This document shows, in pieces, positions 43,563-62,640 of a stretch of 64,000 nucleotides of DNA. Numbering within the stretch: the first letter of the stretch is position 1; each line of letters starts with the position of its first letter. The position numbers were made by a program, and so were the translations under genes. The notes below the pieces were generated by a model. It had not been told where the DNA came from. It did no database searches and saw only the letters and a program-made list of their open reading frames with translations. Source of the DNA: a virus; IMG/VR virus record IMGVR_UViG_3300045970_000794, positions 298,103 through 362,102 of that record; one strand, written 5' to 3'.

Positions 43563-43742
43563 TTAATTCAAATTCTTTTTAAACACGTCATCATATTTTT
43601 CTTTTGCACTACTGCTGAATAATTTCCAAACAATATACATTAAAAATACTAATGACAGTACAATTAATACTAGTTTCCATAAGAAACAAAATAACATTAT
43701 TAAAATTGCCATGGCCAATGCGGCCCAAAATAAAGTTTTCAT
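43563..43742 (-). CDS. small membrane protein (59 aa)
   Basis: 59-codon frame with a long hydrophobic stretch (AALAMAILIMLFCFLW; LVLIVLSLVFLMYIVW) and a charged tail (SSSAKEKYDDVFKK). 12 nt from the nucleotidase gene. The 200 bp to its left (43362-43562) hold only tiny, doubtful frames (20 and 18 codons) and a GGC/GCC hairpin. Confidence 0.58.
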   Translation of the reverse strand: MKTLFWAALAMAILIMLFCFLWKLVLIVLSLVFLMYIVWKLFSSSAKEKYDDVFKKNLN

Positions 43743-43754
43743 AATTAATTTAAT

Positions 43755-44204: not shown

Positions 44205-44219
44205 TTATATAATTATAAG

Positions 44220-44663: not shown

Positions 44664-44672
44664 GTTCCAATT

Positions 44673-44704
44673 GCAAAACTATAAAAAAAAATTGACAATT
44701 CCTA
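44673..44704 (-). promoter_or_regulatory. probable promoter
   Basis: -7 TAGTTTTG (44673-44680) with a -33 TTAGG (44700-44704) at 19 bp, the same variant -33 as at 9161. Confidence 0.5.
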
Positions 44705-44710
44705 ATAAAA

Positions 44711-45307
44711 TTACAACTTTATCTTATTATCCTCAAACTCAGCGATTAATTTAATCCTACTCCTACGATGAATACCACGTATGGTTGATGCCTTCATCTT
44801 CAATTCAACAGCAATATCCTTCAATTGAATGGAATCAATTACGTGTCTATTGAAAATAGTCCGTTCCAAATCATTCAATTTAGTATCAATTAATTTCAAC
44901 ATCAATTCAGCATCTACTTGTTGACTATCCTCAAGTTCTTTCTCATTATAGTAACTTAATGATTTATTAGCAATGTCAACCTGACATTCATCACAATAAT
45001 TTAATGCAATATTCTTTTTAACACTCTTACGCCTATATTTATCAATGCAAAAGCATTTGAATAACATATAAGCCCAAGTGATAAATGCACCTTTTTCTGG
45101 GTCAAATTTATCTAAATTATTGAATAATTTAATATAAGCTTCTTGGCACCAATCACTAGCTTCATGAGAATCATTCGCATATTTGTAACATACGATGAAT
45201 AATGTACTATATGTCTTACGATATAATTCATAAAATGCTGAATGTTCACCAGCAATAGCTGATTTAATTACAGAATAGTCAATTAATATAGTGTTTTTAT
45301 ATTCCAT
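44711..45307 (-). CDS. ECF-type RNA polymerase sigma factor
   Basis: At 198 aa it has sigma region 2 (FYELYRKTYSTLFIVCYKYA, then WCQEAYIKLFNNLDKFDP and FITWAYMLFKCFCIDKYRRK) and region 4 with a HTH (IQLKDIAVELKMKASTIRGI, then HRRSRIKL). No region 3: ECF layout. It is 1 nt upstream of RNase R. It probably serves a second class of phage or host promoters. No anti-sigma gene is adjacent. Confidence 0.88.
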   Translation of the reverse strand: MEYKNTILIDYSVIKSAIAGEHSAFYELYRKTYSTLFIVCYKYANDSHEASDWCQEAYIKLFNNLDKFDPEKGAFITWAYMLFKCFCIDKYRRKSVKKNIALNYCDECQVDIANKSLSYYNEKELEDSQQVDAELMLKLIDTKLNDLERTIFNRHVIDSIQLKDIAVELKMKASTIRGIHRRSRIKLIAEFEDNKIKL

Positions 45308-45308
45308 A

Positions 45309-47234
45309 TTAATTATATTTAGATAATTCGAACGCCCTTCTATCCAAAGAAACGCTCTTAACTTTAACCATTATCTCATCACCGAGTTTTAATTTATACC
45401 CACTACTACCAACAACGCAATAGTTTGATACATCTGATGTGAATTGTTCATCGGGAATGATATCACCCAATCTCATCAATCCCTCACATTTAGAATCAGC
45501 TAATTCAACAAATACACCGCTTTCAATTATACCAGTTACCACACCCATGAATATCTTACCAACTTTATCAGCCATATATTCAGTTTGTTTGTATTTAATT
45601 GATTCACGTTCGGCTTTCTGAGCTTTACGTTCTCTTTCAGATAAGTGAGAACATTTACCTTCTAATCGATTACCATTAACATTAAACTTGCTATCTAAGT
45701 ACCTAGTTAATAATCTATGTACCATTATGTCTGGATAACGTCTAATTGGTGATGTGAAATGACAATAATCTTGAAACCCTAAACCATAGTGACCAACATT
45801 ATGTGTTGTGTAGGTTGCTTTAGACATTGTACGAACGATTAATCGGTTAACCATATTTTCCAATGGTTTACCCTCAAGCTCTTTAATTATTTTTTTAAAA
45901 CTAGCTTTAGTATCAGCTGGGTTTTTAGTATTAACTTTTAAATCGAATTGAGCTAAGAATGTTTTTAATTCTTCAATCTTTTCATCATCTGGTAACTCAT
46001 GAGCTCTGTTCACCATCGGTAAACCATTCAATCTAGCGTATTCAGCTACTTTTCTATTAGCTAATAACATATATTCCTCAATCAAATTATTAGAATCCAA
46101 TGATTCCTTCACAATAATTTTAACTGGTTTCTTGTTTTCATCTAATTCGAATTTAAAGCTAGGGCTTTTCATTTCAATAGCACCTTTACTTATTCTAATA
46201 GCTCTCATTTTCTTAGCTAAATCATTTAGTATTACTAAATAATCACCTAAGAATGCACCTGATGGGTCACTAATAAATCTATTATCATCGCCACGGTCAA
46301 TACATTCTTGTGCGCTTTCATATGTAAACCTATGTCTAGAACATATTACAGTTCTACCCATCCAAGTGTTCATAATTTTAGCATCCTTATTCATTGTCAC
46401 AACCACTGAGAAACATAACCTATCTTCAAATGGTTTCAAAGAACAAATGTCATTCGACAAATATTCTGGAATCATTGGTATCACTCTATCAACTAGATAG
46501 ATTGATGTACCACGTGAATATGCCTCAGCATCGATAGATGTTTCTGGTCTTACGTAGTGAGACACATCAGCAATATGAATACCAATTTCATAACAACCCA
46601 TATCAACTTCTCTGAATGATAATGCATCATCAAAGTCTTTAGCATCAACAGGGTCAATCGTGAATGTAGGTACTTTACGGAAATCTCTTCTCTTTTTAAT
46701 TTCACGTTCAGTTATCTCTCTACTGATACCTTCAGCTTCGTCCAATACATCTTGTGGGAATTCGGTTGGTAAACCATATTCTTGGATAATTGCATGCATT
46801 TCAACATCATTATCACCAGCATCACCTAACACTTCAACAATCTTACCTAATGGACATTTATCTTGTGGTCTCCACTCGATTAATTCAGCAATAACTTTCT
46901 GACCATTTGTGGCTCCATTTAAGCGTGTTAGAGGCACGTAAAAGTCAACTGATAGTTTTCTATTATCTGGACGAAAAAATGCGAAATTATCGCTTATATC
47001 AATCCTACCGACAAATTTATCTTTGTATCTCTTAACAACTTTTATAACTTTAGCTTCTAGAGGTCTATCTTGAGACTCTATAACTTTTATTTCAACCGTA
47101 TCTAAATGTAACGCTTGATTAATATTTTCTTTTTGAACATAAAGGTCCTTAGCCATTTCATCCGATTGGAAATATGCTGACCCACTTAAATTCAATGTAA
47201 TTTTACCTTTATAGGTATCCCCTACTTTTATCAT
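45309..47234 (-). CDS. rnr: ribonuclease R (RNB exoribonuclease)
   Basis: At 641 aa it has N-terminal cold-shock-like OB domains, the RNB catalytic domain with TIDPVDAKDFDDALSF (the metal-binding Asp cluster), GIHIADVSHYVRP and HFTSPIRRYPDIMVHRLLTRY, and a C-terminal S1 domain (GKIFMGVVTGIIESGVFVEL). It is somewhat shorter than typical RNase R (700-800 aa), lacking an N-terminal helix-turn-helix extension. The enzyme degrades structured RNA 3' to 5', acts with SmpB/tmRNA on non-stop mRNAs, and could recycle host RNA. Confidence 0.95.
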   Translation of the reverse strand: MIKVGDTYKGKITLNLSGSAYFQSDEMAKDLYVQKENINQALHLDTVEIKVIESQDRPLEAKVIKVVKRYKDKFVGRIDISDNFAFFRPDNRKLSVDFYVPLTRLNGATNGQKVIAELIEWRPQDKCPLGKIVEVLGDAGDNDVEMHAIIQEYGLPTEFPQDVLDEAEGISREITEREIKKRRDFRKVPTFTIDPVDAKDFDDALSFREVDMGCYEIGIHIADVSHYVRPETSIDAEAYSRGTSIYLVDRVIPMIPEYLSNDICSLKPFEDRLCFSVVVTMNKDAKIMNTWMGRTVICSRHRFTYESAQECIDRGDDNRFISDPSGAFLGDYLVILNDLAKKMRAIRISKGAIEMKSPSFKFELDENKKPVKIIVKESLDSNNLIEEYMLLANRKVAEYARLNGLPMVNRAHELPDDEKIEELKTFLAQFDLKVNTKNPADTKASFKKIIKELEGKPLENMVNRLIVRTMSKATYTTHNVGHYGLGFQDYCHFTSPIRRYPDIMVHRLLTRYLDSKFNVNGNRLEGKCSHLSERERKAQKAERESIKYKQTEYMADKVGKIFMGVVTGIIESGVFVELADSKCEGLMRLGDIIPDEQFTSDVSNYCVVGSSGYKLKLGDEIMVKVKSVSLDRRAFELSKYN

Positions 47235-47285
47235 ACTTTTTTTTTTATTTTAATTCCATTGTTTACCTGATGGTTTTTCAACTGT

Positions 47286-47663
47286 TCACCCAGTATATGC
47301 ATCATATTTATAATAAAGATTATCTATATCATAAAGTCTTCTATTTATCTCTTCAAGTTTAGCTAACTGAAGGTCACGGTTTAATTCTGGCGTTGTTCCG
47401 TTAAATAAACCATTACCATAAGGAGCTTCATCATCATCGTCATCACAAACATCACCTTCTTGATTAACTAATATATCATCTAATGTGATACCACTATCAA
47501 ATGGTTTTGACATTCCAACTATTACTAGTTTATTTTTAAAACATTTAGTATATTCAAATATAAAATACTCAACGATTATATTATGGTTGAATCTAATAGT
47601 TATTTTTTCACTAGCACCATCAATATCCGACCAATCAATGTTATTATCCGTACAAAAAATCAA
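47286..47663 (-). CDS. hypothetical protein (125 aa)
   Basis: Contains an acidic run (CDDDDDEAP) and a C-terminal helix (LAKLEEINRRLYDIDNLYYK). Overlaps its upstream neighbour by 20 nt. Function unknown. Confidence 0.62.
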   Translation of the reverse strand: MIFCTDNNIDWSDIDGASEKITIRFNHNIIVEYFIFEYTKCFKNKLVIVGMSKPFDSGITLDDILVNQEGDVCDDDDDEAPYGNGLFNGTTPELNRDLQLAKLEEINRRLYDIDNLYYKYDAYTG

Positions 47664-47952
47664 CTAATATAGTTAAATTAGGGTGTACTTCATTAATTTT
47701 ATATTTTAACGTAACTTGATATTCGTTAATATTATTATTAGAGTTAAACACACCCATTTCAACATGTGATACATCTTTAAAAATATTATCACCACCGAAA
47801 TGAATGATACAATCCTCGAATGATATTAAATCAGAACATTGTGCCTTATCAGTCAGTAGTTTAAAACCTTCCCAAAATCTGGTTACACCATGCTTTTCAA
47901 AGATTTCTTTAATACTTTTATCTCTTTCTTCACTAGATGCATTCATTTTCAA
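47644..47952 (-). CDS. hypothetical protein (102 aa)
   Basis: FEKHGVTRFWEGFKLLTDKA and a strand-rich second half (NINEYQVTLKYKINEVHPNL). Function unknown. Confidence 0.62.
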   Translation of the reverse strand: MKMNASSEERDKSIKEIFEKHGVTRFWEGFKLLTDKAQCSDLISFEDCIIHFGGDNIFKDVSHVEMGVFNSNNNINEYQVTLKYKINEVHPNLTILVDFLYG

Positions 47953-48463
47953 CTATGTACTTTTTCGCTTCTTCATATGTCATACCTTCTGACATACGTT
48001 TTCTTAGGATGTAAGCACCTAGGCATACGCAGTTTTCACTAGTACCCCATGGTTCACTAGTTTTATGACATGGGCAGAATTCAACGTGGAAATTAGAATT
48101 TTGATTAAGAATTGCATCATCCAATTCCAATCTGATTTGTTCTTTCCTTGCTTTATTTTGTGCTCTAACCATTACAATGCTAGCCATTAATGAATTCAAT
48201 TCATCTTCAGTCATTTTTAAAACGTTAGTAAAACGTTCATTTTGTGATAATATACCAGAATACATTGCTTTTTGGAATTTTAATCCATCAATGATTGATA
48301 ATTTATTTTTACCACCAGTTTCAGCATTACCATCCAATGAGAATTCATCATCAGCGATTGTTGTTAATTTTTTTAATTGAGCATTAACATCTTTTAAATC
48401 ATCAATAGTTTTAGTAGTTTCAGATTCCAAAAAGTTTAGCAATAATTGCAATTTCATTTCCAT
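47933..48463 (-). CDS. hypothetical protein with C-terminal Cys cluster (176 aa)
   Basis: Long helices (LLNFLESETTKTIDDLKDVN; MASIVMVRAQNKARKEQIRL), then FCPCHKTSEPWGTSENCVC near the end, a likely zinc or metal site. Function unknown. Confidence 0.66.
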   Translation of the reverse strand: MEMKLQLLLNFLESETTKTIDDLKDVNAQLKKLTTIADDEFSLDGNAETGGKNKLSIIDGLKFQKAMYSGILSQNERFTNVLKMTEDELNSLMASIVMVRAQNKARKEQIRLELDDAILNQNSNFHVEFCPCHKTSEPWGTSENCVCLGAYILRKRMSEGMTYEEAKKYIVENECI

Positions 48464-48465
48464 TC

Positions 48466-48735
48466 TTAATATTTTTTTTTAATTATGTTATTTTCCGTTA
48501 TGTAAAAATACCTAACGAGTTTTTGAGCAAATATTGGGTTATATCCAAAAGCACCACATAAAAATGAACTTTCAGAAAAAAAACAAGTGTTATTTGATAA
48601 ATTTATCGCAATACATTCGTTATCAGAAACCCAGTTTTCCCATGTCATTTCTGGGTCTACTTCTTTCCACGTATCAATAGCAATAAATTTAATGTACTTA
48701 TAATTTTTTTGATATTCGCTTTCTATTTCACTCAT
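48466..48735 (-). CDS. hypothetical protein (89 aa)
   Basis: ATG at 48735 (MSEIESEYQKNYKYIKFIAI). A promoter-like sequence overlaps the start region (TATATTTG at 48739-48746), so the mRNA may be nearly leaderless. Function unknown. Confidence 0.6.
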   Translation of the reverse strand: MSEIESEYQKNYKYIKFIAIDTWKEVDPEMTWENWVSDNECIAINLSNNTCFFSESSFLCGAFGYNPIFAQKLVRYFYITENNIIKKKY

Positions 48736-48738
48736 GTA

Positions 48739-48769
48739 CAAATATAATAAATTTTAATGTATAATGCAA
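48739..48769 (-). promoter_or_regulatory. possible promoter without leader
   Basis: -7 TATATTTG (48739-48746) and -33 TTG (48767-48769) with a 20-bp spacer. The ATG is only 3 bp from the -7 box, so transcription would start at or next to the start codon. Confidence 0.4.
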
Positions 48770-48775
48770 GGAATA

Positions 48776-49000
48776 TTAAAGATATTTTGAATTGTAATAA
48801 GTTTCTGGCGTATCATTTAATAATATCTTCAAATCACCTAAAATTAATTCATTTATTTCTTTTTTCAATTTTAATTTACACCCCATTAATTTAATTGCTT
48901 CATATGTGCGATTAGGAAATAAACTAATTAATTCATTTTTAGTTGAATTTTTATACGTTTTAATTAATAAATTAATTTCTTTTTGACTCCATTTTATCAT
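48776..49000 (-). pseudogene. truncated homing endonuclease (Myb-like N-terminus only)
   Basis: The 74-aa frame starts with a SANT/Myb-like HTH (WSQKEINLLIKTYKNSTKNE ... YEAIKLMGCKLKLKK) and then reads ILGDLKILLNDTPETYY, the segment that in intact LAGLIDADG-type endonucleases leads into the catalytic domain. It stops eight residues later. The catalytic part is lost. Confidence 0.5.
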
Positions 49001-49119
49001 TTTGGTATTTATTTAGATTGTTGTTATCCTTTTAATATACCTTGATATTGAAAAAATCAACTTACTATAAAAATAAATTTGATAATTGAATGAACCCGCA
49101 TATATTCCAATTTTTCTCA

Positions 49120-49653
49120 TTATTCAAAATTTAGTTTAGTTTTACAATACTCAAAAAAGGTTAAACCACTCTTAGTTAAATCATCAAACATAAACTTAGC
49201 ATAACCCATATATTTACCAATAGCGTTCATATCTAACTGCATTGGCGAATCATCAATACGACCATTTAATTTATAAAATGTCATTGTCGCATACTTTTCA
49301 GCAAATCGTTCTTCTTCAATTAAATGATTTAAAAAATCCTCATATACTGTAATAGCACCAACTAAACTATCAATAGCATCAACACCTATTTTACGAATTC
49401 TAAGATAGTGACCAATCTCATGTAAAATAATATGATATTGATTAACCAATGAAACGTATCTGATTTCATTTAAATTTAATATGATACTAATTGGGTTAGT
49501 AGCGGCAAATGCTCTAGAATATGGTGGTGGAAATTTATACGCCTTAATTGGTATGTTCTCTTTATCAATTAAATCCACCAATCCAGTGAAATTTAAATTA
49601 TCAGCATTACCTAATGAAATTAAGTAATCTCTAACTGAAATATCTTCATTCAT
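49120..49653 (-). CDS. putative zinc metallopeptidase (HEXXH)
   Basis: At 177 aa, YHIILHEIGHYLRIR holds the HExxH zinc motif at ~80-90; a downstream EERFAEKYATMTFYKL could supply the third ligand (Glu). The layout is close to the ImmA/IrrE-like branch (HExGH plus a later E-x-x-A). The target is unknown; such phage proteases may cleave repressors or host proteins. Confidence 0.7.
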   Translation of the reverse strand: MNEDISVRDYLISLGNADNLNFTGLVDLIDKENIPIKAYKFPPPYSRAFAATNPISIILNLNEIRYVSLVNQYHIILHEIGHYLRIRKIGVDAIDSLVGAITVYEDFLNHLIEEERFAEKYATMTFYKLNGRIDDSPMQLDMNAIGKYMGYAKFMFDDLTKSGLTFFEYCKTKLNFE

Positions 49654-49706
49654 AATTTAAAACATTAAAAATTTAAGTACCATTAATTCGTTTAATAGCA
49701 CTTTTG

Positions 49707-49737
49707 CAAAGATACATATATTTATTTAATATAACAA
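49707..49737 (-). promoter_or_regulatory. Bacteroidota-type promoter
   Basis: -7 TATCTTTG (49707-49714), -33 TTG (49735-49737), for the metallopeptidase gene. Confidence 0.65.
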
Positions 49738-49757
49738 GTATTTTTAAACTTATTTTT

Positions 49758-50540
49758 ATGAAAATTTTTAGTCAAGAAGAAATTAATGAAATTATTAGAT
49801 TATACACTATTGATATGTTAGGTACACCAACGATTGGTAAAAAGTTTAATATCAGTAAAAGAACCATCAATAATTTATTAAATAAAAATAATATTATTAT
49901 TGGTAAATCTGGTGGTAAATTTAAGGGTGGTAAAAAAATATCTGATAAAAAATATCGTGAAAAAAATAAAGAAAAAGCTAAAAAATACCAAGAAAACTAT
50001 CACCCTATATATTATCAAGAAAACAAAGAAATGCTAATTGATAAACATAAAACATATCGTGAAAATAATAAAGAAAAAGAGCAAATACGACATAAAATAT
50101 ATCGTGAAAATAATGCAGATAAAATTAAAATATATCGAATTTCGTATAAAGAAATTAGAAATTTAAAACATATTGAAAAAATGAAAATAAACCCACTTTA
50201 TAAATTAAAACATAATATTCGAGGTTTAATAAAAAATGGATTTAAAAGTAAATATTATATTAAACAATCTAAAACACAAGATATTTTAGGTTGTTCGTTT
50301 GAAGAATTTAAACTACATCTTGAATCACAATTTGAAAATTGGATGAACTGGGATAATTTTGGTAACTCTATTGATGGTATTATTGAACCAAATAAAACTT
50401 GGGATATTGACCATATTATTCCAATATCTTTAGCTAAAACAGAGGAAGATATAATTAAATTAAACCATTTCACTAATTTACAGCCGCTATGTAGTTATGA
50501 AAATCGTTTCATTAAACGAAATAAATTACTAAAAACATAA
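49758..50540 (+). CDS. HNH homing endonuclease
   Basis: Start at 49758 (MKIFSQEEINEIIRLYTIDM); the longer frame reads through the promoter on the other strand. N-terminal HTH (GKKFNISKRTINNLLNKNN), a very basic middle (Lys, Arg, Asn repeats) and a C-terminal HNH domain (TWDIDHIIPISLAKTEED ... NLQPLCSYENRFIK). Free-standing mobile nuclease; its last 29 bp overlap the end of the convergent gene. Confidence 0.88.
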   Translation: MKIFSQEEINEIIRLYTIDMLGTPTIGKKFNISKRTINNLLNKNNIIIGKSGGKFKGGKKISDKKYREKNKEKAKKYQENYHPIYYQENKEMLIDKHKTYRENNKEKEQIRHKIYRENNADKIKIYRISYKEIRNLKHIEKMKINPLYKLKHNIRGLIKNGFKSKYYIKQSKTQDILGCSFEEFKLHLESQFENWMNWDNFGNSIDGIIEPNKTWDIDHIIPISLAKTEEDIIKLNHFTNLQPLCSYENRFIKRNKLLKT

Positions 50541-50889
50541 ATAATATTACAGTCACACCAATAATAAACCCATTGAAAAAATCAGCTGGGCTAAATTTAA
50601 TAATTGTTTTTTTATTGTAATTATCTAATAGTGAACCATATATCCGTTTGGAGCAGCTTCCAATTAGTTGCATTGTGATGGGTCCATGAGCATTTATCGT
50701 TTGCCTTAGGGCTCCATTAATCTTATTTAATTCAATCTTCTTAACTCTTCTTAACTTCTCAATGGTATTCAAGTTATCCTTTTCATACTCATCGAAAATA
50801 GCTATTAATTGTTCGATATCTTTTTTAGAGAATTCATTAACAAGCTTTTGTTCCAATCTACCTTTTCTGGTTCTTATTACATTAAACAT
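50512..50889 (-). CDS. membrane-anchored hypothetical protein (125 aa)
   Basis: Helical, charged N-terminal ~95 residues and a C-terminal membrane segment (FFNGFIIGVTVILFMFLVIY). The 3' end is overlapped by the HNH endonuclease gene. Tail-anchored topology is likely. Confidence 0.66.
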   Translation of the reverse strand: MFNVIRTRKGRLEQKLVNEFSKKDIEQLIAIFDEYEKDNLNTIEKLRRVKKIELNKINGALRQTINAHGPITMQLIGSCSKRIYGSLLDNYNKKTIIKFSPADFFNGFIIGVTVILFMFLVIYFV

Positions 50890-50912
50890 TTAGTTCTTTT
50901 ATAATAAATATC

Positions 50913-51311
50913 CTAATCTAATTCTAAATGACTAGTTATTTTATCAATTTCATCAGCCCAAAATGGACCAATTCCAACGCAAGTATTTGTTGGATTACCT
51001 TTAAATTCAGTCAACCCAGCATCAGTGATTAAAATTGATGGGATTTTAGCTGATTGTGCGGCCGCATAAATGCTTAATAGTTCAGCTTCATCTTTACATT
51101 TAACAACAATTTTAGTGAATCGGCCATTTAACCAATTGTCCCAAGCACCACCTTTTTTAAGATGTAATATGAATTTACATGGGTCAAGTGTGCGCATAGC
51201 ATTAACTAATACCGCAACTGAAGCATGGGCAACTTGTGCACCATATTTACCACGTCTAACCTTTAAATCATTCCTCCAAACTAAAACCATTTTTGTTTTC
51301 CTATTTTCCAT
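50913..51311 (-). CDS. pth2: peptidyl-tRNA hydrolase 2 (Pth2)
   Basis: At 132 aa it fits Pth2: MVLVWRNDLKVRRGKYGAQ, AHASV (catalytic region), a Lys/Glu-rich middle ending IVVKCKDEAELLSI, and the C-terminal TDAGLTEFKGNPTNTCVGIG. Pth2 frees tRNA from prematurely released peptidyl-tRNA. It is the archaeal/eukaryotic-type enzyme, not the bacterial Pth, which the host should already have. Confidence 0.93.
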   Translation of the reverse strand: MENRKTKMVLVWRNDLKVRRGKYGAQVAHASVAVLVNAMRTLDPCKFILHLKKGGAWDNWLNGRFTKIVVKCKDEAELLSIYAAAQSAKIPSILITDAGLTEFKGNPTNTCVGIGPFWADEIDKITSHLELD

Positions 51312-51318
51312 AATAAAA

Positions 51319-52146
51319 TTAAGATTTATATGTTTGATTATCTTTTAAAATTCGTCTTATCAAATAAATACTAATATTAAACATTTCAGATAATTGTTTA
51401 GTAACTTTAAAACCATTATTTTTATATTCACTAATAATTTCGTTAATGACTGCATTATCAAATTCAACATAATTTGGATTCCCACTTTTCAATTTACTAT
51501 TTGACATTAAAATTCTACCATTTTCAGTAATATCAGTACGCTTACCATTAATATCTAATCTTTTTTTACAACTAGAACTAATTAATTTTTTAAATGAATC
51601 AGTTTTATAATAACTATTTTCTGATTGTTTTTTTTTAATTTCATTAGCTTTAATTTCACCATATCTTTCAACATAATTTAATTTTAATTGCTCAATCATT
51701 TTATTTGCTTTTTCTTCACCCCAACGCTCAACAAGTGTTTTATCTTTTTGAAAATCAGATAATTTTTTACGCTGTTCATTAGTAAGTGGCTTGCGAATTT
51801 GTTCTTTTGATTTTTCACCAATAATTCGTTTAGTTTCTTCACTATGCTTCCAGCCACTACAACCATGACCACCTTTAGTTGAATTATATCCTTCACCAAT
51901 AAAAGTATTGTATTTTTCAATATAATAAATTTCTAAATAATTTAAATCATCAACCGATACAACCCCCTCCAATACTTCCCATTCAAAATTATCAGGTCCA
52001 TATTTTTTAATTGCACGATGAAAATGATATTTTGACCCACGCAATGCATTTTTAATGTGTTGATTTTTACGCTCTTCTAATGTTTTAATGGTCTGACCAA
52101 TATATTTCAATCCATTAATTTTGTTTGTTACTAAATAAATTACCAT
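51319..52146 (-). CDS. GIY-YIG homing endonuclease
   Basis: At 275 aa the GIY-YIG domain is at the start (VIYLVTNKINGLKYIGQTIK, Arg/His and Glu further on, YNSTKGGHG). A basic linker with an NUMOD-like GWKHSEETKRIIGEK follows, and the C-terminus (ISEYKNNGFKVTKQLSEMFN) is a HTH. It sits between pth2 and the DGR. Confidence 0.9.
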   Translation of the reverse strand: MVIYLVTNKINGLKYIGQTIKTLEERKNQHIKNALRGSKYHFHRAIKKYGPDNFEWEVLEGVVSVDDLNYLEIYYIEKYNTFIGEGYNSTKGGHGCSGWKHSEETKRIIGEKSKEQIRKPLTNEQRKKLSDFQKDKTLVERWGEEKANKMIEQLKLNYVERYGEIKANEIKKKQSENSYYKTDSFKKLISSSCKKRLDINGKRTDITENGRILMSNSKLKSGNPNYVEFDNAVINEIISEYKNNGFKVTKQLSEMFNISIYLIRRILKDNQTYKS

Positions 52147-52229
52147 ATTTATATGTTTATATATAAATATAATGAATATTCTAAAAAGTCAAAGTATCAT
52201 TACCCCACACAATGACTTGTTTAACTTTT

Positions 52230-52745
52230 TTATTTAAAATAAATATCTTTATATAAATCGATAAAATAATTCCCAATATAATAAGCCAAATCTTCACTTT
52301 TTAAATAAAGGGCCGAGGGAACAATCATATCACTAATATTGTAATCAGTGCTATAACAGGAAAACACACCGCTATTTTTATTAAAATAAGCGAAATATTT
52401 CATTTGAGAGTCATTATCCCAATCTGGATACCAGCCTTCATTTAATGCTTCGATAATTATACTTAATTTATAATAAGCAATTAAATGTTTATCTTTAAGC
52501 AATTTTAAGTCAATTGGTATTATATTAAGTTTAATACAAGCATCTTCAAACGAAGTAACACCCAATTTTTCACCAAAAATATATAAATTAGCTTTTATTA
52601 TTTTATTTCGTTCATTTAAATCGCCAACGCCTAAAATATCAAATATTTCATCTGAGTTTTTAATTGATATATAACTGAACTTTTCTTTAATTGTGGTAAT
52701 CCACCCATCAAAAGTTTGGTGTGGATTATAAAAATCTGGTTTCAT
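52230..52745 (-). CDS. DGR variable protein 2 (171 aa)
   Basis: The N-terminal ~95 residues are helical (FDILGVGDLNERNKIIKANL; SFEDACIKLN). Then comes a conserved IIEALNEGWYPDWDNDSQMK, and the variable segment at ~125-145 (SGVFSCYSTDYNISDMIVPS). The last 27 residues (LYLKSEDLAYYIGNYFIDLY, KDIYFK) are shared with variable protein 1. The Gly-Trp and SGVF...LYLKS frame suggests a scaffold holding a diversified binding face, probably a ligand-binding protein. It overlaps the RT by 20 nt. Confidence 0.9.
   Translation of the reverse strand: MKPDFYNPHQTFDGWITTIKEKFSYISIKNSDEIFDILGVGDLNERNKIIKANLYIFGEKLGVTSFEDACIKLNIIPIDLKLLKDKHLIAYYKLSIIIEALNEGWYPDWDNDSQMKYFAYFNKNSGVFSCYSTDYNISDMIVPSALYLKSEDLAYYIGNYFIDLYKDIYFK
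52312..52373 (-). repeat. DGR variable repeat 2 (VR2)
   Basis: 62 bp. Eight differences from the template, each at a template adenine: changed to C, G or T. Two neighbouring codons changed N to S and N to D. The GC-rich CCCTCGGCC end (initiation of mutagenic homing) matches VR1 exactly, and a 14-bp block beyond it (CTTTATTTAAAAAG) is also identical. Confidence 0.92.
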
Positions 52746-53691
52746 TTATATGTTTTTTAAGTAAATGTTTTCCGTTACAATGTTTAATCCAACCATTATA
52801 TGATGCAAATGACTTTTTATTAGGATTATTTTTCATCATCCGAATGAAATTTATTTTAATACCTTTTCGTAATAATATATGGGTATGATAAAATTTATAC
52901 CCAACAAAATCAACACCTCTATCTTTAACTGGAAATATCTGATAATTAGATTTTATTTTTAATAATAGTTTAGATTCAATATACCACTTAATATCACCTA
53001 ATAATTTATGTAATTCACTTTTACTAGATGAGAATATTACCATATCATCAGCATATCTAAAATAATATTTAACTAATTTTTCTTCTTTTAACCAATGGTC
53101 AAAATATGTTAAATATAAATTAGCAAAATACTGACTAGTATAATTACCTATTGGTAGACCATCCGTTGAATCAATAATCTCATCTAATAACCATAATAAA
53201 TCACTATCTTTTATTTTTCGTCTAATTATTGATTTTAGTATATCATGACTAATACTAGGATAAAATTTACTAATATCTAATTTTAAACAATATTCAGTAT
53301 TTTCAATATCTTTTAATGATTTTTTAACCGCATTAGCGGCACCATGTATTCCCCTACCTTTTATGCAACTATAAGTGTTACTAGTAAATATATTTACAAA
53401 TATCGGTTCCAAAATATTCATAATCGCATGATGGATAATTCTATCTGGATAATATGGTAAGGAAAAAATTAAACGTTCTTTACCCTCATTTATAATAAAG
53501 GTTTTATATTTAGATGTTTTAAATGTTTTATTAATTAATGATTCATGTAATCTTAAAATATTTAAATTTCTATCTTTATCAAATGAAATAACATCACATC
53601 TATTTTTCTTACCTTTTCTAGCTTTAGAATCAGCCAATTCTAAATTTTCAATAGATATTATTTTATCATATAAATTATTAAATCGTTTCAT
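52726..53691 (-). CDS. DGR reverse transcriptase
   Basis: 321 aa from ATG at 53691 (MKRFNNLYDKIISIENLELA); a GTG at 53733 extends it by 14 residues. The start MKRxxNLY...ENLELADSKARKGKK is typical of DGR RTs. RT domains in order include LPYYPDRIIHHAIMNI, YCLKLDISKFYPSI (first catalytic Asp), LPIGNYTSQYFANLYL (the (I/L)GxxxSQ signature that separates DGR RTs from group II intron RTs with QGxxxSP), FRYADDMVIFS (YADD active site) and VDFVGYKF. It makes error-prone cDNA from template RNA, misreading adenines, to rewrite the variable repeats. Confidence 0.97.
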   Translation of the reverse strand: MKRFNNLYDKIISIENLELADSKARKGKKNRCDVISFDKDRNLNILRLHESLINKTFKTSKYKTFIINEGKERLIFSLPYYPDRIIHHAIMNILEPIFVNIFTSNTYSCIKGRGIHGAANAVKKSLKDIENTEYCLKLDISKFYPSISHDILKSIIRRKIKDSDLLWLLDEIIDSTDGLPIGNYTSQYFANLYLTYFDHWLKEEKLVKYYFRYADDMVIFSSSKSELHKLLGDIKWYIESKLLLKIKSNYQIFPVKDRGVDFVGYKFYHTHILLRKGIKINFIRMMKNNPNKKSFASYNGWIKHCNGKHLLKKHINETRFL

Positions 53692-53768
53692 CCCTTTGTT
53701 ATTAATAGTTACGGTCTCTAATGATACTAGCACCTATTTAAAATTTAAATTTTTTACCATGTTGGTAA

Positions 53769-53782
53769 GGTTTATGTTATTA
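53769..53782. repeat. left arm of inverted repeat around the DGR template
   Basis: GGTTTATGTTATTA, the perfect complement of 53865-53878. It lies 21 bp beyond the template end. A second small hairpin (GTTATTAA/TTAATAAC, 53776-53783 and 53791-53798) shares bases with this arm and would compete. Confidence 0.85.
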
Positions 53783-53803
53783 AGTAAGATTTAATAACAA
53801 GTT

Positions 53804-53865
53804 GCTGAGGGAACATTCATATTACTATTATTGTAATTAGTGTTATAATATGAAAACACACCGCT
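53804..53865 (-). ncRNA. DGR template repeat (TR)
   Basis: Lies between variable protein 1 and the RT. On the minus strand it reads AGCGGTGTGTTTTCATATTA at its start, then mostly AAC and AAT codons (virtual translation SGVFSYYNTNYNNSNMNVPS), the codons that give widest diversity when A is mutated. The terminal CCCTCAGCA differs from CCCTCGGCC in both VRs, as template and target ends do in known DGRs. Expected to be transcribed as part of a longer RNA with the RT. Confidence 0.93.
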
Positions 53866-53878
53866 AATAACATAAACC
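53865..53878. repeat. right arm of inverted repeat around the DGR template
   Basis: TAATAACATAAACC, a perfect 14-bp partner of 53769-53782. It abuts the start of the template homology to one base. Enclosed loop of 82 nt. Confidence 0.85.
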
Positions 53879-53884
53879 AGAATT

Positions 53885-54436
53885 TTACATATAAAGTATC
53901 TCATACTCTCTAAGCGCAATTTTAATAGCATGTTTAGCTAATCCTTCGCTTTTTAAATAAAGGGCCGAGGGAACATTCATATTACTAATATTGAAATAAG
54001 TGTAATAATATGAAAACACACCGCTTTTAATTTCAAACCAATTATAATATTTATAATCATTTTTAGTAAAATCTGGATACCAACCTTCATTTAATGCTTT
54101 AATAATCGTTTTTAATTTTTTATATGCAATATCATTTGGTGTATCATATTGTAAACTAAATACTCCGTTCTGGTCTACATTAAGAACATTACAAGCATCC
54201 TCAAATGACTTAACTCGCTCAATAATGTTTTTTTCTTGTTTGAAAAACTTAGATAAAACAATTTTTTGTTTCTCATCTGATGCTGCAAACATTTCATTTA
54301 CTTCATTCTCAGTGAATTCAATGAACTCATCAAAATGATTCCGACTAGCATATTCTTCCAATTTTTTTTTCCAACTAAAACATGCAATGTCATGTATTAA
54401 TTTTAAATTTTTTCTAGATATTTGTTGTGTTTTCAT
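53885..54436 (-). CDS. DGR variable protein 1 (183 aa)
   Basis: A helical N-terminal domain (LIHDIACFSWKKKLEEYASR; FIEFTENEVNEMFAASDEKQ) unlike that of protein 2, then the shared IIKALNEGWYPDFTKNDYK module. The variable stretch is SGVFSYYYTYFNISNMNVPS (~138-158), and the shared tail LYLKSEGLAKHAIKIALREY ends it. First gene after the promoter at 54459. The variable segment carries Tyr, Phe and Ile where the template has Asn or Tyr. Confidence 0.9.
   Translation of the reverse strand: MKTQQISRKNLKLIHDIACFSWKKKLEEYASRNHFDEFIEFTENEVNEMFAASDEKQKIVLSKFFKQEKNIIERVKSFEDACNVLNVDQNGVFSLQYDTPNDIAYKKLKTIIKALNEGWYPDFTKNDYKYYNWFEIKSGVFSYYYTYFNISNMNVPSALYLKSEGLAKHAIKIALREYEILYM
53964..54025 (-). repeat. 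DGR variable repeat 1 (VR1)
   Basis: 62 bp. Five differences from the template, all at template adenines: four A to T and one A to G in the last codons. Confidence 0.92.
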
Positions 54437-54458
54437 AATTTAATTATTTAATTTAATG

Positions 54459-54490
54459 CAAAGATATAAAAAATATTTTAATCTACCAAA
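54459..54490 (-). promoter_or_regulatory. Bacteroidota-type promoter of the DGR
   Basis: -7 TATCTTTG (54459-54466), -33 TTTGG (54486-54490). It would transcribe variable protein 1, template RNA, RT and probably protein 2. Confidence 0.74.
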
Positions 54491-54501
54491 TAAAAATACA
54501 A

Positions 54502-55020
54502 CTATTTTTTTGGTATTGGTTTAAGCATAATAATTAATCTAGTACCTTCAAAAACTGGGGTTTTTTCAGCGATACAAACACCAGAGAGTTCATTAATCAC
54601 TTTCTCTAATATTTGATACCCGAATTCTTTATGAGACATTTCACGGCCTTTAAAAAAGACTGAGGTTTTAACTAAATTACCTTTAATTAACCACTCCTTA
54701 GCATGTTTAAGTTTAAAATTTAAATCATTCTCATCGATAGCTGGTCTTAATCTTAATTCTTTAACCTCAACCTTAACTGGTTTCTTCTCAGCTTTTTTCT
54801 TTTCGTAAATATATTTTTCAAAATCAACTACTTTACAGATTGAGATTTCTGGATTATTAGCATTTATTTCTAATAAATCTAGGTCTAGGTCATCAGCAAT
54901 TTTAATAGCTTCTTGAAGTGAGTAAATACCCACAGTTACATTATCACCAACAAGTCTAACTTGTTTAGCTCTAATATCGGAATTGATTTTATACCGATTA
55001 AATTTATTTTTTTCTTTCAT
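54502..55020 (-). CDS. infC: translation initiation factor IF-3
   Basis: At 172 aa it is full-length. The N-domain reads RYKINSDIRAKQVRLVGDNV, GIYSLQEAIKIADDLDLDLL, EI. A basic linker follows (EKKKAEKKPVKVEVKELRLR), and the C-domain (FKLKHAKEWLIKGNLVKTSV; FKGREMSHKEFG; RLIIMLKPI) has the IF-3 ribosome-binding pattern. IF-3 keeps 30S subunits free and checks start codons. A phage copy could redirect initiation to phage messages. It has its own promoter at 55050. Confidence 0.94.
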   Translation of the reverse strand: MKEKNKFNRYKINSDIRAKQVRLVGDNVTVGIYSLQEAIKIADDLDLDLLEINANNPEISICKVVDFEKYIYEKKKAEKKPVKVEVKELRLRPAIDENDLNFKLKHAKEWLIKGNLVKTSVFFKGREMSHKEFGYQILEKVINELSGVCIAEKTPVFEGTRLIIMLKPIPKK

Positions 55021-55308: not shown

Positions 55309-56177
55309 GTAAAAAATTAACAATTGATGAGATAATTAATAAAATTATTGATAATGATTACGATTTTTCACAATCAAATTATGTATCATTAGATAAAAAA
55401 ATAATCGTAATTGATATTGACGGGTTTGAGCATTTAATAAGACCAGATAGTTTATTAGTTGGAAATAAATTAAATATTAAAAGTGTTATCAATAAAGAAA
55501 ATTATTTAATTAAAAAATTTAATAAAATTCACAAAAATTTATTTGATTATTCTAAATTCACATATATAAATTCTGACACTAAAATTGATATCATATGTCA
55601 GACCCACGGTATTTTTAAACAAACTATTAATAATCATTTAAGAGGTAAAGGATGTCCTAAATGTAATGGTAAAAATAAAAGTAATAATGATATTATCAAT
55701 GAGTTTAAATCAACTCATGGTAATAAATACAATTATTCAAAAGTAACATATAGTGGGATTAAAAATAAAGTAATTATTATATGTCCAAAACATGGTGAAT
55801 TTAAACAATCACCAGAGGAACATATTAAAGGTTGTGGATGTCCAATCTGTAAAGAATCTAATGGTGAACGTAAAATTAGGTTATTTTTAGAATCAAATAA
55901 TGTTTCATATATACCACAACATAAATTTAATGATTGTAAAAATATATTAAGTTTACCATTTGACTTCTATTTACCTGATTATAATACATGTATCGAATAT
56001 CAAGGTGAACAGCATTATAGACCTATCGAATATTTTGGTGGTATTAAACAATTCAATAAACAAATAATTAATGATAAAATAAAAATGGAATATTGCCAAA
56101 ACAACAATATTCCATTAATAATGATTAAATATGGTGAAAACATATTTGAAACATTAAAAAAATTTTCTAATATTTAA
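55305..56177 (+). CDS. homing endonuclease-like protein, zinc repeats and PD-(D/E)XK core
   Basis: At 290 aa, two full zinc repeats (FDYSKFTYINSDTKIDIICQ...; YNYSKVTYSGIKNKVIIICP...) follow a ~60-residue N-terminal segment unlike the other two members. The nuclease core is SYIPQHKFNDC, then PFDFYLPDYNTCIEYQGEQH. Its 3' end overlaps the phosphoesterase gene end by 11 bp. Confidence 0.76.
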   Translation: MSKKLTIDEIINKIIDNDYDFSQSNYVSLDKKIIVIDIDGFEHLIRPDSLLVGNKLNIKSVINKENYLIKKFNKIHKNLFDYSKFTYINSDTKIDIICQTHGIFKQTINNHLRGKGCPKCNGKNKSNNDIINEFKSTHGNKYNYSKVTYSGIKNKVIIICPKHGEFKQSPEEHIKGCGCPICKESNGERKIRLFLESNNVSYIPQHKFNDCKNILSLPFDFYLPDYNTCIEYQGEQHYRPIEYFGGIKQFNKQIINDKIKMEYCQNNNIPLIMIKYGENIFETLKKFSNI

Positions 56178-57741
56178 ATGTTGTGAAATCGCCATTGGAA
56201 AATGTGATTAATTGAGCCTTACCATCTTGATGTATTATACAATGTGTTTGAGACCAACTACTTGGGCCTTCATTATACCCCACTCTAAGGTTTGTTGATG
56301 TTCCAACTTGTAGAACACCATCCTTTCTACCGCAACTATGGCTATGTCCAATAATCATCTTAGTATTTAATCTTCTAAATTGTTCTAATGAACCCCTAGA
56401 ACCATTAGCACCTACATCACCATGTTGAGCTAATTCCCATTTTTTAACTACATAACTATCTGAGCGATTTAACGTCTTAATTTTAGGGTAGTGTTTCTTA
56501 ATTATCCATGGAATTACACCATCTTTAGCTTCACCACTCAATATCGCAGCACTATATTGCATATATTCCAATGAATTTTTTGGGGTATTAGTTTTACGCC
56601 AATCGGTATTGATTAACCAACGGTCAACAAAATCATCATGGTTACTTCTAACAATAACAACATTATAGTTTTTGAATTTATCTAATTCGACTAACATTTC
56701 ATCAACTTCGTTTTTCAATGAATTTTTATTATTCATTTCTTTCTCATATTGAGTGAATGGGTTATCCATTTCATGATGATTAATTGAATGACCATTGAAT
56801 ATATCATGCATAATAACATGTTGTGGCTTTAATCTATTCAATAATTCTAACGTTTTTTCAATAACTTCATTGTCTTGGTCACCAACATGGTAATCACCCA
56901 AAACTATAGCGGCCGCTGAATCAATCGTTGTAACTTCACCTTTATCAACTCTATAAAATAAATCAGTAAAAGCACCAGCTTCATTGGCAGTTACCTGTCT
57001 TGCAAAAAATATTTCATCATCTTTTATTTCAACCACTACAAACCCGTATGTATGATGAAACTCACCCTTTTTACCAGCTTTAGAATCAGTGTAATCCTTA
57101 ATGGTGACAGCACCAGTGGTCATCATCATTTTAGGCTTTTGCGTATGTAACACAGGAATTGACATCATTTGCACTTTAGGTGCACCAAAAATACAAGAAT
57201 TAATACCTGACACACCTTCTAACCCAGACATTGGATTTACAGCTGTTGGTTGAATCTTAAAATCACCCATAATAGAAACGTACTTATGAACATTATGTCT
57301 AGCCGCATCTAAATATGGTAGGACTTCTTTTTCCCAATACTCATAATCTTTATCTGTGAAGATTGATGTTGGGTTTTTGTATCTACCAGCGATGATGTGG
57401 ATATCCGCATCTAAAAACTCAGCATATGCTTCCATATTTCTTAAAAGCCTTGTATGCACAGCGGTATTATTCTGGGCCCAACTAATAAGGAATCTTTTCT
57501 TTTCTTTATTAAAAACTCGCTGTTTAGCAAGTTCATATTGTTCTGAAGGTGTTTCAGTTACTTTTTCTTTAAAATGTAATCGTTCAAACCATTTTCGAAT
57601 AGTTCGTTCCGATACACCTAATTGAAGACCCAAATTAAATGCAATTTTTTCAACAGTTAAATTTGAATCTTTCCGACCATAATAAGCGTTTTTTAATGTT
57701 ATCTTATCTTGTTCAGTTAATTTTTTAAAACTTTTTTTCAT
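56167..57741 (-). CDS. calcineurin-like metallophosphoesterase, T5 A1-like
   Basis: At 524 aa, residues 1-60 are a HTH (VEKIAFNLGLQLGVSERTIR). The catalytic core follows from ~280: GDYHVGDQD, FNGHSINHHE, VIVRSNHDDF (a GNHD-like motif with Ser), AQHGDVGANGSRGSLEQF and IIGHSHSCGRKDGVLQVGTS. The plan resembles A1-type proteins of T5-like phages, which help degrade host DNA. The N-terminal HTH suggests DNA targeting. Nuclease action is inference. Confidence 0.78.
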   Translation of the reverse strand: MKKSFKKLTEQDKITLKNAYYGRKDSNLTVEKIAFNLGLQLGVSERTIRKWFERLHFKEKVTETPSEQYELAKQRVFNKEKKRFLISWAQNNTAVHTRLLRNMEAYAEFLDADIHIIAGRYKNPTSIFTDKDYEYWEKEVLPYLDAARHNVHKYVSIMGDFKIQPTAVNPMSGLEGVSGINSCIFGAPKVQMMSIPVLHTQKPKMMMTTGAVTIKDYTDSKAGKKGEFHHTYGFVVVEIKDDEIFFARQVTANEAGAFTDLFYRVDKGEVTTIDSAAAIVLGDYHVGDQDNEVIEKTLELLNRLKPQHVIMHDIFNGHSINHHEMDNPFTQYEKEMNNKNSLKNEVDEMLVELDKFKNYNVVIVRSNHDDFVDRWLINTDWRKTNTPKNSLEYMQYSAAILSGEAKDGVIPWIIKKHYPKIKTLNRSDSYVVKKWELAQHGDVGANGSRGSLEQFRRLNTKMIIGHSHSCGRKDGVLQVGTSTNLRVGYNEGPSSWSQTHCIIHQDGKAQLITFSNGDFTTFKY

Positions 57742-60175: not shown

Positions 60176-61462
60176 ATGGCACAATTTATTAAAATTGAAT
60201 GGGATGCAAGTCCATCACCAATTTCGGGATATAATGTATATCGTGGTGGTGCTGACGGCAATGAATCAAATGTACCACTTAATACTTCACCAATTACGGA
60301 TACATTTTATGACGACTATACAATATTTCCTGGTAAGGTATATTGCTATACCGTTACAGCTGTTTTAAACGGTGTGGAAAGTACCAACTCACTAAAAATT
60401 TATACTGAGCCAATTGGATTTATTAATTCACCAGCACAATTAGATTTAGGTGCTTTCGCTGGATTTGGTTTGCTAGCAGCGACTACAATTACTAACGTTC
60501 CTGGAACTGGAACCACATCAGACGTAACTGGTGATGTTGGTGTATTTCCAGGTTCATCAATCACTGGTTTTGAATCAGTTAGAATTTCTGGTTCATACCA
60601 TTTAGCTGATTATGTAGCTGGTTATGCACAAAGTTCATTAACAAATACGTTTCTTACTGGTATGGCATTAACTGGTGCAACCTCAGTTCCAGCCGATTTG
60701 GGTGGCCTTGTTTTAATACCAGGAATTTATTCAGCCGCTACTTCAGCTGCCATTACTGGCGTTTTAGTATTGAATGCTGAAGGTAATCCAGATGCTGTTT
60801 GGGTTTTCCAAATAGGTTCAACATTAACTACTGCTGCTGGCAATAGCACTGTTGTCCTAGTTGGTGGTGCTCAAGCAACAAACGTTACTTGGTTAGTCGG
60901 TTCTTCAGCAACTATGGGTGTTGATACAATTTTCGCTGGTAATGTTATTGCATATGCATCAATCACAGTAAATACTAACGCATCTGTTTGCGGAAGATTA
61001 GGTGCTAGAACAGCTGCAATTACATTAGATAAAAATGCTATTATTATTTACGGTTCTTGTTATGAGCCTTTGCCAGCATCGCCAGCAAATACACCACCAG
61101 AACCACCAAGTGCACCAACAGGTGTTCACGTTGATGATTTAAATGCTGATGGTTTAGTTAATAATATTCCAATATTACCAATTGTTACAACGTCAGTTAT
61201 TAGTATGTTGTCAGAAACTTCCGCAAATGGTGGTGGTAACATAACACATGATGGTTATGATGTTATTATCGCACGTGGAGTTTGTTGGAGTACTAACATC
61301 AATCCATTATTAACTGGAAGCCATACAATTGATGGTTCGGGTGTTGGTGTATTCACATCTTTAATTGCAAATTTATTACCATTCACAACGTATTATGTTA
61401 GAGCTTACGCTGTAAACTCTGCTGGTACTGCTTATGGTGATAACGTAATGTTCATCAATTAA
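60176..61462 (+). CDS. tail-fibre-like protein with FN3 and ice-binding-like (DUF3494) domains
   Basis: At 428 aa it has three parts. Residues 1-80 are fibronectin III-like (IEWDASPSPISGYNVYRGG). Residues ~88-300 fit DUF3494, the ice-binding beta-solenoid (FAGFGLLAATTITNVPGTGT, then SDVTGDVGVFPG; AGNVIAYASITVNTNASVCG, then RLGARTAAITLD). After a Pro-rich linker, ~340-428 form a Bacteroidota surface beta domain also found in the lipoprotein at 31423. No signal peptide, so a virion fibre or adhesin is likely; ice binding itself is unproven. Confidence 0.78.
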   Translation: MAQFIKIEWDASPSPISGYNVYRGGADGNESNVPLNTSPITDTFYDDYTIFPGKVYCYTVTAVLNGVESTNSLKIYTEPIGFINSPAQLDLGAFAGFGLLAATTITNVPGTGTTSDVTGDVGVFPGSSITGFESVRISGSYHLADYVAGYAQSSLTNTFLTGMALTGATSVPADLGGLVLIPGIYSAATSAAITGVLVLNAEGNPDAVWVFQIGSTLTTAAGNSTVVLVGGAQATNVTWLVGSSATMGVDTIFAGNVIAYASITVNTNASVCGRLGARTAAITLDKNAIIIYGSCYEPLPASPANTPPEPPSAPTGVHVDDLNADGLVNNIPILPIVTTSVISMLSETSANGGGNITHDGYDVIIARGVCWSTNINPLLTGSHTIDGSGVGVFTSLIANLLPFTTYYVRAYAVNSAGTAYGDNVMFIN

Positions 61463-61533: not shown

Positions 61534-62640
61534 ATGGCCTCAATATTTCAAAGATTAAAAATACCAACTTCAATTTCAACCGTATCAACAGGATTATTTA
61601 ATTCATTAATGGATTATTTTGATAAAGGTATAAGTGGTATATTTTTCACAACACCAATTCGTTATTCTACTAGCTATGGTATAACAGCAAATCCTAATGG
61701 TGGTCAAGCACATGCAACTAGATTGTTAAGTGAAATAAATAATGTAGATATAGTTTCAACAAACGGTGATAGTGTAAAATTAATGACTGCATTACCAGGT
61801 TATTCTATAACTGTAAAAAATAATGGATTAAAAAATTTATTAGTTTACCCATACGAATTGGATAAAATTGATGAAGAACTAGCTGACGTTCCAATAACAA
61901 TGCTACCAGAAGAAACAAGAGTCTTTAAATCAATTAGTGATTCTCGTTGGGAAAGTATGCCAAATAGTCTTCAAACTATTACCTACGTGTTGAGTGGTAA
62001 TTCATTGCCAACAACACCATCAGTTTATGACTTAAAATTAGCGTCTACTTTTGCCATTCTTACTGATGGTGCGATTACAATTAGTAATCCACAATTAATA
62101 ATACCTTATGGACGTTCTGGTGAAGCAAGTTTAACACCAACAACTGGTATAACATTTATCAATGGCTCTGATGCTGGATTAAGCGCTAGTGCTGTGACTG
62201 ATTCAAATACTTTATTTAATGAATTAGTTGTTTTGACTGGTTATACTTTCGGTGCAGTTAATTTAGAAACCGTGAATGTTGGATATGGTGCTGGTACATT
62301 TATGTCTGGCGTTTATATTGGCTCAACTAGTATAGTAACATCAGCCTCTCAAACTATAAAATTAGTTGGTGATGGTGATTATATTTTCATAAGTCAAGGT
62401 GCTATGACATTCGGTGCATCAACAACAATTGAACTAACACATGGTGCGCAAGCTAGTAGAGTATATTGGGTATCTGTAGGTGCTATTACTACTGGTGCAG
62501 TTAATATTCTTAAAGGAAACTTTATCACATCAGCTGCAATTAATATCGGAGCAACAAATGATATTGAAGGTAGACTATTATCAACATTAACCTCTGAAAT
62601 AACAATAGATGGTATAGCAACTAATATTTACTTACCATAA
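61534..62640 (+). CDS. second ice-binding-like (DUF3494) structural protein
   Basis: At 368 aa, the N-terminal ~150 residues are specific (IFQRLKIPTSISTVSTGLFN; a strand domain with VTVKNNGLKNLLVYPY-like repeats). The rest, from LASTFAILTDGAITISNP to IEGRLLSTLTSEITIDGIA, follows DUF3494. Paralogous to the C-terminal part of the previous gene's solenoid. Probably a virion or tail component. Confidence 0.72.
   Translation: MASIFQRLKIPTSISTVSTGLFNSLMDYFDKGISGIFFTTPIRYSTSYGITANPNGGQAHATRLLSEINNVDIVSTNGDSVKLMTALPGYSITVKNNGLKNLLVYPYELDKIDEELADVPITMLPEETRVFKSISDSRWESMPNSLQTITYVLSGNSLPTTPSVYDLKLASTFAILTDGAITISNPQLIIPYGRSGEASLTPTTGITFINGSDAGLSASAVTDSNTLFNELVVLTGYTFGAVNLETVNVGYGAGTFMSGVYIGSTSIVTSASQTIKLVGDGDYIFISQGAMTFGASTTIELTHGAQASRVYWVSVGAITTGAVNILKGNFITSAAINIGATNDIEGRLLSTLTSEITIDGIATNIYLP

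What the first reader, a model, noticed from the sequence alone, without database searches (positions are those of the whole stretch)
52230..54490. Complete diversity-generating retroelement with two target genes
Seen: an RT with YADD and the LPIGNYTSQ signature, a template repeat, and two variable repeats. Aligning 62 bp, the template differs from VR1 at 5 positions and from VR2 at 8. All 13 are adenines in the template strand sense and none is at any other base. The template's virtual translation is dominated by Asn (AAY) codons. Known: adenine-specific variation is the hallmark of mutagenic retrohoming. Inference: the phage diversifies two surface or binding proteins, possibly to change host attachment.
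Basis: partly seen in the sequence, partly recalled or inferred. Interest (0 to 1): 0.88.

Follow-up and report, generated by a model that had tools for sequence, protein, structure and literature searches.

The report
Phage mutagenic retroelement with non-tail targets
A giant phage carries a genuine gene-diversifying retroelement, but the two small proteins it diversifies belong to a family that in related phages lies among DNA-replication and recombination genes rather than tail genes, so it probably varies something used inside the host cell rather than the part that grips the host.

Summary
Window 52230-54436 (minus strand) holds a complete diversity-generating retroelement (DGR): target1/VR1, TR, structured spacer RNA, RT, target2/VR2. 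All TR-VR mismatches (5 and 8) fall on TR adenines. One in each pair is a fixed IMH/IMH* difference, leaving 4 and 7 that look mutagenic (P about 2.5e-6). The RT is closest to the solved Bordetella-phage DGR RT. The nearest relatives look active: two 12,963-bp copies differ at only 8 bases, all in one VR and all opposite TR adenines.

The 'surface protein / host attachment' inference is not supported. Both targets belong to phrog_11581 (unknown function), show no secretion or membrane signal, and confident models find no PDB fold match. In nine relatives whose DGR diversifies a tail or tail-like protein beside the RT, the same TR also has VRs in remote phrog_11581 genes 13-57 kb away. Where annotated, most of those sit in replication/recombination or counter-defence regions. 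One such remote target was already published (Quimbyvirus); its spread, its conserved placement, and DGRs with no other detected target are, as far as I could find, new. Best reading: a real, probably active DGR diversifying small non-virion binding proteins.

The parts
53885..54436 (-). Target gene 1 (183 aa, phrog_11581 family)
   Evidence: ORF; phrog_11581 E=2.7e-18; contains VR1
53964..54025 (-). VR1 (variable repeat)
   Evidence: 62 bp, 5 mismatches to TR, all at TR adenines
53945..53971 (-). Candidate IMH at the 3' end of VR1 (CCCTCGGCCCTTTATTTAAAAAGCGAA)
   Evidence: 26/27 identical to the VR2 flank but different from TR
53804..53865 (-). TR (template repeat), between target 1 and RT
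53785..53811 (-). Candidate IMH* at the 3' end of TR (CCCTCAGCAACTTGTTATTAAATCTTA)
   Evidence: diverges from both VR flanks; the TCAGCA versus TCGGCC difference recurs in L009
53688..53788 (-). Structured spacer RNA between TR and RT (two hairpins)
   Evidence: 31-sequence alignment: 94.4% of cells paired, 11 of 12 pairs with compensatory change, 0/500 shuffles reach it; weak Rfam RT-17 and RT-14 matches
52726..53733 (-). DGR-type reverse transcriptase, 335 aa from GTG; likely real start ATG at 53691 (MKRF...)
   Evidence: best solved relative 8ub7 at 150 bits, next 75; phrog_1423 E=4e-123; xGxxxSQ motif; start placed by comparison with L009
52230..52745 (-). Target gene 2 (171 aa, phrog_11581 family), overlaps the 3' end of the RT ORF by 20 bp
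   Evidence: ORF; phrog_11581 E=5e-18; 42% identical to target 1
52312..52373 (-). VR2 (variable repeat)
   Evidence: 62 bp, 8 mismatches to TR, all at TR adenines
52293..52319 (-). Candidate IMH at the 3' end of VR2

Best explanation
A functional diversity-generating retroelement in a jumbo phage, probably of Bacteroidota. TR RNA with its structured spacer is copied by the DGR RT with errors opposite adenine, and the mutated cDNA replaces VR1 and VR2 at IMH (mechanism inferred from family knowledge; anatomy and adenine signature shown here). Both targets are small, probably non-virion phrog_11581 proteins; the VR encodes a beta strand and the following loop, which probably forms a variable binding surface. 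Most likely (inferred) they act inside the infected cell against varying host partners such as defence or replication factors, rather than as tail adhesins.
For: DGR: adenine-only mismatches, P about 2.5e-6; RT closest to the Bordetella-phage DGR RT; adenine-pattern TR/VR pairs in 73 of 81 loci tested, window included, with 1745 of 1783 mismatches at A (the detector favours A, so this purity is partly by construction); covarying spacer RNA. Activity in nearest relatives: L009 and L062 differ at 8 of 12,963 bp, all in one VR and all at TR adenines; L008 adds 3 more. RT tree places the window with L008/L009/L062 at 97/82. Non-virion targets: all 59 aligned targets hit phrog_11581; no membrane or signal-like segment in either window target; remote adenine-specific VRs in phrog_11581 genes of phages whose cis target is a tail or tail-like protein: Versailles 14/14, BI-TP1 14/14, cr52_1 12/12, cr56_1 16/16, cr60_1 14/16, four IMG/VR phages 8/8, 16/16 and 15/15, 10/12, 7/9. 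Remote genes neighbour SbcC, RecT, helicase-loader and replication-initiation genes or methyltransferases and a tRNA ligase. The commonest named families beside cis small-target DGRs are methyltransferases and terminase; no tail family is among the 25 listed.
Against: No experiment. Non-virion status is inferred from genome position and the lack of export signals; phage structural proteins also lack signal peptides. One search shows only the top 25 of 201 families. Gene order in this 362-kb genome is poorly known. cr60_1 (2 of 16), L074 (2 of 12) and L075 (2 of 9) have some non-adenine mismatches. In the crAss-like phages the remote genes lie among hypothetical genes, so their module is unclear. 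There are no population data for this phage itself; a search for VR variants found none.
Confidence: 0.72

Rival explanations
1. The targets are virion receptor-binding proteins: small lectin-like tips displayed on the particle, as Mtd is in Bordetella phage BPP-1.
For: Most described phage DGR targets are tail proteins (PMC8144416). The VR segment of this family matches the C-terminal VR of tail targets over 26 columns. The Versailles homologue was annotated 'tail protein' by its depositors.
Against: Similarity to tail targets is confined to the VR, so that annotation may come from the VR alone. The gene lies in replication/recombination or counter-defence regions in several phages whose DGR already has a separate tail target. 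The window genes lie far from terminase and sheath.
Confidence: 0.2
2. A DGR that has become silent: parts intact, few VR substitutions, no current retrohoming in this phage.
For: Only 4 and 7 substitutions among about 20 adenines; all four in VR1 are A to T. Relatives typically show 10-18. No variant of this VR was found in IMG/VR.
Against: RT ORF intact with YADD and xGxxxSQ; TR, IMH/IMH* and the spacer RNA are conserved; the nearest relatives are variable, although one of their VRs has equally few TR-VR differences (5 in L009).
Confidence: 0.2
3. Ordinary paralogous genes with decaying repeats, or a group II intron or retron RT next to chance repeats.
For: Targets 1 and 2 are paralogues (42% identical).
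Against: The TR lies outside the target ORFs and its mismatches to each VR fall only on A. The RT scores 150 bits to the DGR RT against 75 or less for other solved RTs and stays far below the group II and retron cut-offs.
Confidence: 0.02

Closest known systems
Bordetella phage BPP-1 DGR (bRT, Mtd)
   Same: RT, TR, VR, adenine-specific change, IMH/IMH* logic
   Different: One tail-fibre target, a known Avd accessory protein and a 134-bp VR (PMC6199706); here a 62-bp TR, two small phrog_11581 targets on either side of the RT, no accessory protein identified
Quimbyvirus DGR (Benler et al. 2021, PMC8008677)
   Same: A second target outside the structural module, near methyltransferases and a tRNA ligase; the homologous gene in BI-TP1 has this same setting
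   Different: There the same DGR also targets a tail-module protein and both targets are called C-type lectins; here both targets are phrog_11581 and the models match no PDB fold. That the Quimbyvirus protein is of the same family is inferred from its setting
DGRs of crAss-like Buchavirus and Bacteroides phage Versailles
   Same: Related RTs; each has a remote phrog_11581 target
   Different: The main cis target is a tail protein; no phrog_11581 target beside the RT
Rfam RT-17 RNA (RF03020)
   Same: The TR-RT spacer of relative L031 passes the curated cut-off
   Different: The window's own copy scores 25.1 bits, below the 40.4 cut-off

Membership tests
Diversity-generating retroelement | RT of the DGR lineage (xGxxxSQ motif, YxDD) | tested here: met
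   GLPIGNYTSQ and YADD; best solved hit is the DGR RT 8ub7
Diversity-generating retroelement | TR near the RT with VR(s) inside ORFs | tested here: met
Diversity-generating retroelement | Mismatches restricted to TR adenines | tested here: met
   13 of 13 (11 of 11 without the IMH position), P about 2.5e-6
Diversity-generating retroelement | IMH at VR differing from IMH* at TR | tested here: met
   VR flanks 26/27 identical to each other and unlike TR; same contrast in L009. Function not tested
Diversity-generating retroelement | Ongoing VR variation in populations | tested here: inconclusive
   Shown for near relatives; no second genome of this phage found
Diversity-generating retroelement | Avd or other accessory protein (common, not universal) | tested here: inconclusive
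   No PF05635 match in the genome, but the control search also rang nowhere
C-type lectin DGR target | C-type lectin fold around the VR | tested here: inconclusive
   Models at pLDDT 91 and 87 show helices plus a beta hairpin; no PDB fold hit below E=1. No positive control could be run, and a strongly reduced lectin fold is not excluded
phrog_11581 | Profile match | tested here: met
   2.7e-18 and 5e-18 for the window targets; all 59 aligned members match
Phage tail receptor-binding protein | Encoded in the tail module | tested here: not met
   Non-tail neighbours, far from terminase and sheath
Phage tail receptor-binding protein | Present in virions | not testable with these tools
   Needs proteomics
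Rfam RT-17 | Gathering score | tested here: not met
   25.1 bits against 40.4

The most novel reading that the evidence does not exclude
Bacteroidota phages use DGRs to hypermutate an intracellular protein family (phrog_11581) deployed against variable host defences or host replication factors: a phage-borne diversified counter-defence repertoire, in some phages coupled through one TR to tail diversification so that entry and intracellular conflict are diversified together.
Probability: 0.35. Interest if true: 0.85.

Novelty: new variant of a known kind. Interest (0 to 1): 0.52.

Why it matters
Phage DGRs are usually read as host-range switches acting on tail fibres. Here most of the nearest RT relatives with a detected target (57 of 69 loci) instead diversify small proteins that look non-structural, and several phages whose DGR has a tail target also diversify one of these in trans. 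If they act inside the cell, phages possess targeted hypermutation for intracellular conflict, and the long-standing question of what non-tail DGR targets do becomes testable in isolated Bacteroides phages (Versailles, BI-TP1) that carry the gene.

Tried and rejected
Fourth TR-like hit at genome 287388-287423: gapped and in an unrelated ORF, rejected as chance. Pattern search for VR variants of this phage in IMG/VR: none. Search with target 1 alone in viral contigs: no confirmed relatives. Pfam Pox_C4_C10 hit to target 1 (19.5 bits, below cut-off, 1 of 59 members): rejected. Avd by PF05635: control empty, so inconclusive. Detector run with C, G or T as the free base: finds pairs in fewer loci (2, 40 and 19 of 81, against 73 for A) and mostly less pure ones; I did not trace each, but VR-VR pairs and swapped TR/VR are expected among them. 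cr109_1 (no RT annotated in the stretches read) and BT-TP2 gave no remote VR. One ORF chosen for L189 in alignment A8 was not the target gene; no conclusion rests on it.

Full report
Observation. The cassette reads on the minus strand as target 1 (54436-53885) with VR1 (54025-53964), TR (53865-53804), spacer, RT (53733-52726; likely true start ATG at 53691) and target 2 (52745-52230) with VR2 (52373-52312). TR-VR1 has 5 mismatches and TR-VR2 has 8 over 62 bp, all at TR adenines. Position 60 (A in TR, G in both VRs) is a fixed difference that recurs in relatives L009, L062 and L008 and belongs to the IMH/IMH* boundary, so the mutagenic count is 4 and 7. With 21 adenines in 62 bases the chance of that pattern is about 2.5e-6. 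The two VR flanks agree at 26 of 27 bases while the TR flank diverges, as expected for IMH versus IMH*.

RT. The closest solved protein is the 8ub7 reverse transcriptase (150 bits over residues 16-314; the next RTs reach 75). That this entry is the Bordetella-phage DGR RT rests on my own knowledge. Group II and retron models score far below their cut-offs. In a tree of 78 RTs the window groups with L008/L009/L062 (97/82), all with small-protein targets. RT relatives in genomes are mostly from Bacteroidota, which suggests, without proving, a Bacteroidota host. The record is a 362,102-bp virus contig with a terminase and a probable tail-sheath match below the curated cut-off.

Activity. IMG/VR relatives L009 and L062 are identical over 12,963 bp except 8 positions, all in one VR and all opposite TR adenines; L008 adds 3 of 3. 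Across six near-identical locus pairs of small-target DGRs (not all independent) I count 64 of 67 differences inside detected VRs. No second genome of the window's own phage was found.

Spacer RNA. Between TR and RT lies a conserved two-hairpin element. In 31 sequences 94.4% of cells pair, 11 of 12 pairs show compensatory change, and shuffled or slid controls fall far below. It relates to Rfam RT-17: L031 passes the cut-off, the window does not. By analogy with BPP-1 (own knowledge) it probably serves cDNA priming or RT recognition; this is inference.

Targets. Both window targets, and all 59 aligned family members, match phrog_11581, unknown function; Pfam and NCBIfam give nothing reliable. 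Neither window target has a membrane-like or signal-like segment; one of the 59 passes the 19-residue threshold. Models of target 1 (pLDDT 91) and of relative L019 (pLDDT 87) show helices, a beta hairpin and a C-terminal helix; in target 1 the VR covers the second strand and the following loop. Foldseek against the PDB finds nothing below E=1. A profile comparison with tail-type targets aligns only the 26 columns of the VR. Benler et al. called the Quimbyvirus counterpart a C-type lectin, and no positive control was possible, so the fold question stays open.

Where the family sits. Of 69 RT-related viral loci with a detected target, 57 have small targets and 12 have targets of 230 aa or more. 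Among neighbours of the small-target cassettes the commonest named families are DNA methyltransferases and terminases; no tail family is in the top 25 of 201. In phages whose cis target is a tail or tail-like protein, the same TR has remote VRs in phrog_11581 genes: Versailles 14/14 mismatches at A; BI-TP1 14/14, cr52_1 12/12, cr56_1 16/16, cr60_1 14/16; IMG/VR phages behind L059 8/8, L072 16/16 and 15/15, L074 10/12, L075 7/9. From record coordinates the separation from the TR is about 43 kb in Versailles, 46-57 kb in BI-TP1 and the crAss-like phages, and 13-41 kb in the IMG/VR phages. In Versailles the gene lies between a recombination mediator and a replisome organizer. Around the IMG/VR remote genes the commonest named families are metal-dependent hydrolase, recombinase, SbcC-like, endonuclease, replication initiation and helicase loader. 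In BI-TP1 it lies among methyltransferases and a tRNA ligase, the setting Benler et al. described for the second Quimbyvirus target (PMC8008677). In the crAss-like phages the neighbours are mostly hypothetical proteins. L062's phage has a fourth, remote member about 47 kb away with 5/5 mismatches at A, one of them the IMH position.

Interpretation. Shown: a complete DGR, adenine specificity, recent variation in close relatives, family membership of the targets, and adenine-specific VRs in remote homologues outside tail modules where annotated. Inferred: the mutagenic mechanism in this phage, a non-virion role, and action on host partners inside the cell. I found one published precedent for a non-structural phage DGR target; the breadth and syntenic placement shown here were not found in the papers I could search, though bulk surveys such as PMC8144416 probably include many of these sequences among uncharacterised targets. 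I could not read its supplements.

Noticed in passing
L005 3647-3946, L026 6947-7243 and others (alignment A5): A conserved protein of about 99 aa (phrog_19665, unknown function) directly downstream of the RT in about 22 of the 46 small-target DGR loci examined; no match found in the window's genome. Possible DGR accessory or simply a linked gene.
   Followed up: partly
60176-61462 and 61534-62640 (+): Two ORFs with ice-binding-like (PF11999) domains, the first also with a fibronectin type III match, in a phage genome; possible adhesins.
   Followed up: no
41841-55020: Host-like translation and RNA genes in the phage: IF3, peptidyl-tRNA hydrolase 2, RNase R and a sigma-70 factor by profile, and an SmpB-like ORF judged by eye only.
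   Followed up: partly
L185 3894-4328 (genome behind L062): A fourth target of the same DGR, about 47 kb from its TR: 5 mismatches to the TR, all at adenines including the IMH position.
   Followed up: yes
ON453897.1 10181-10762: WAK79127.1 of Bacteroides phage Versailles is annotated 'tail protein' but is a phrog_11581-like DGR target in a recombination/replication operon; the label probably comes from its VR.
   Followed up: yes
56167-57741 (-): 524-aa protein matching a phage 'DNA transfer protein' family (phrog_1745, E=6e-155) near the DGR.
   Followed up: no
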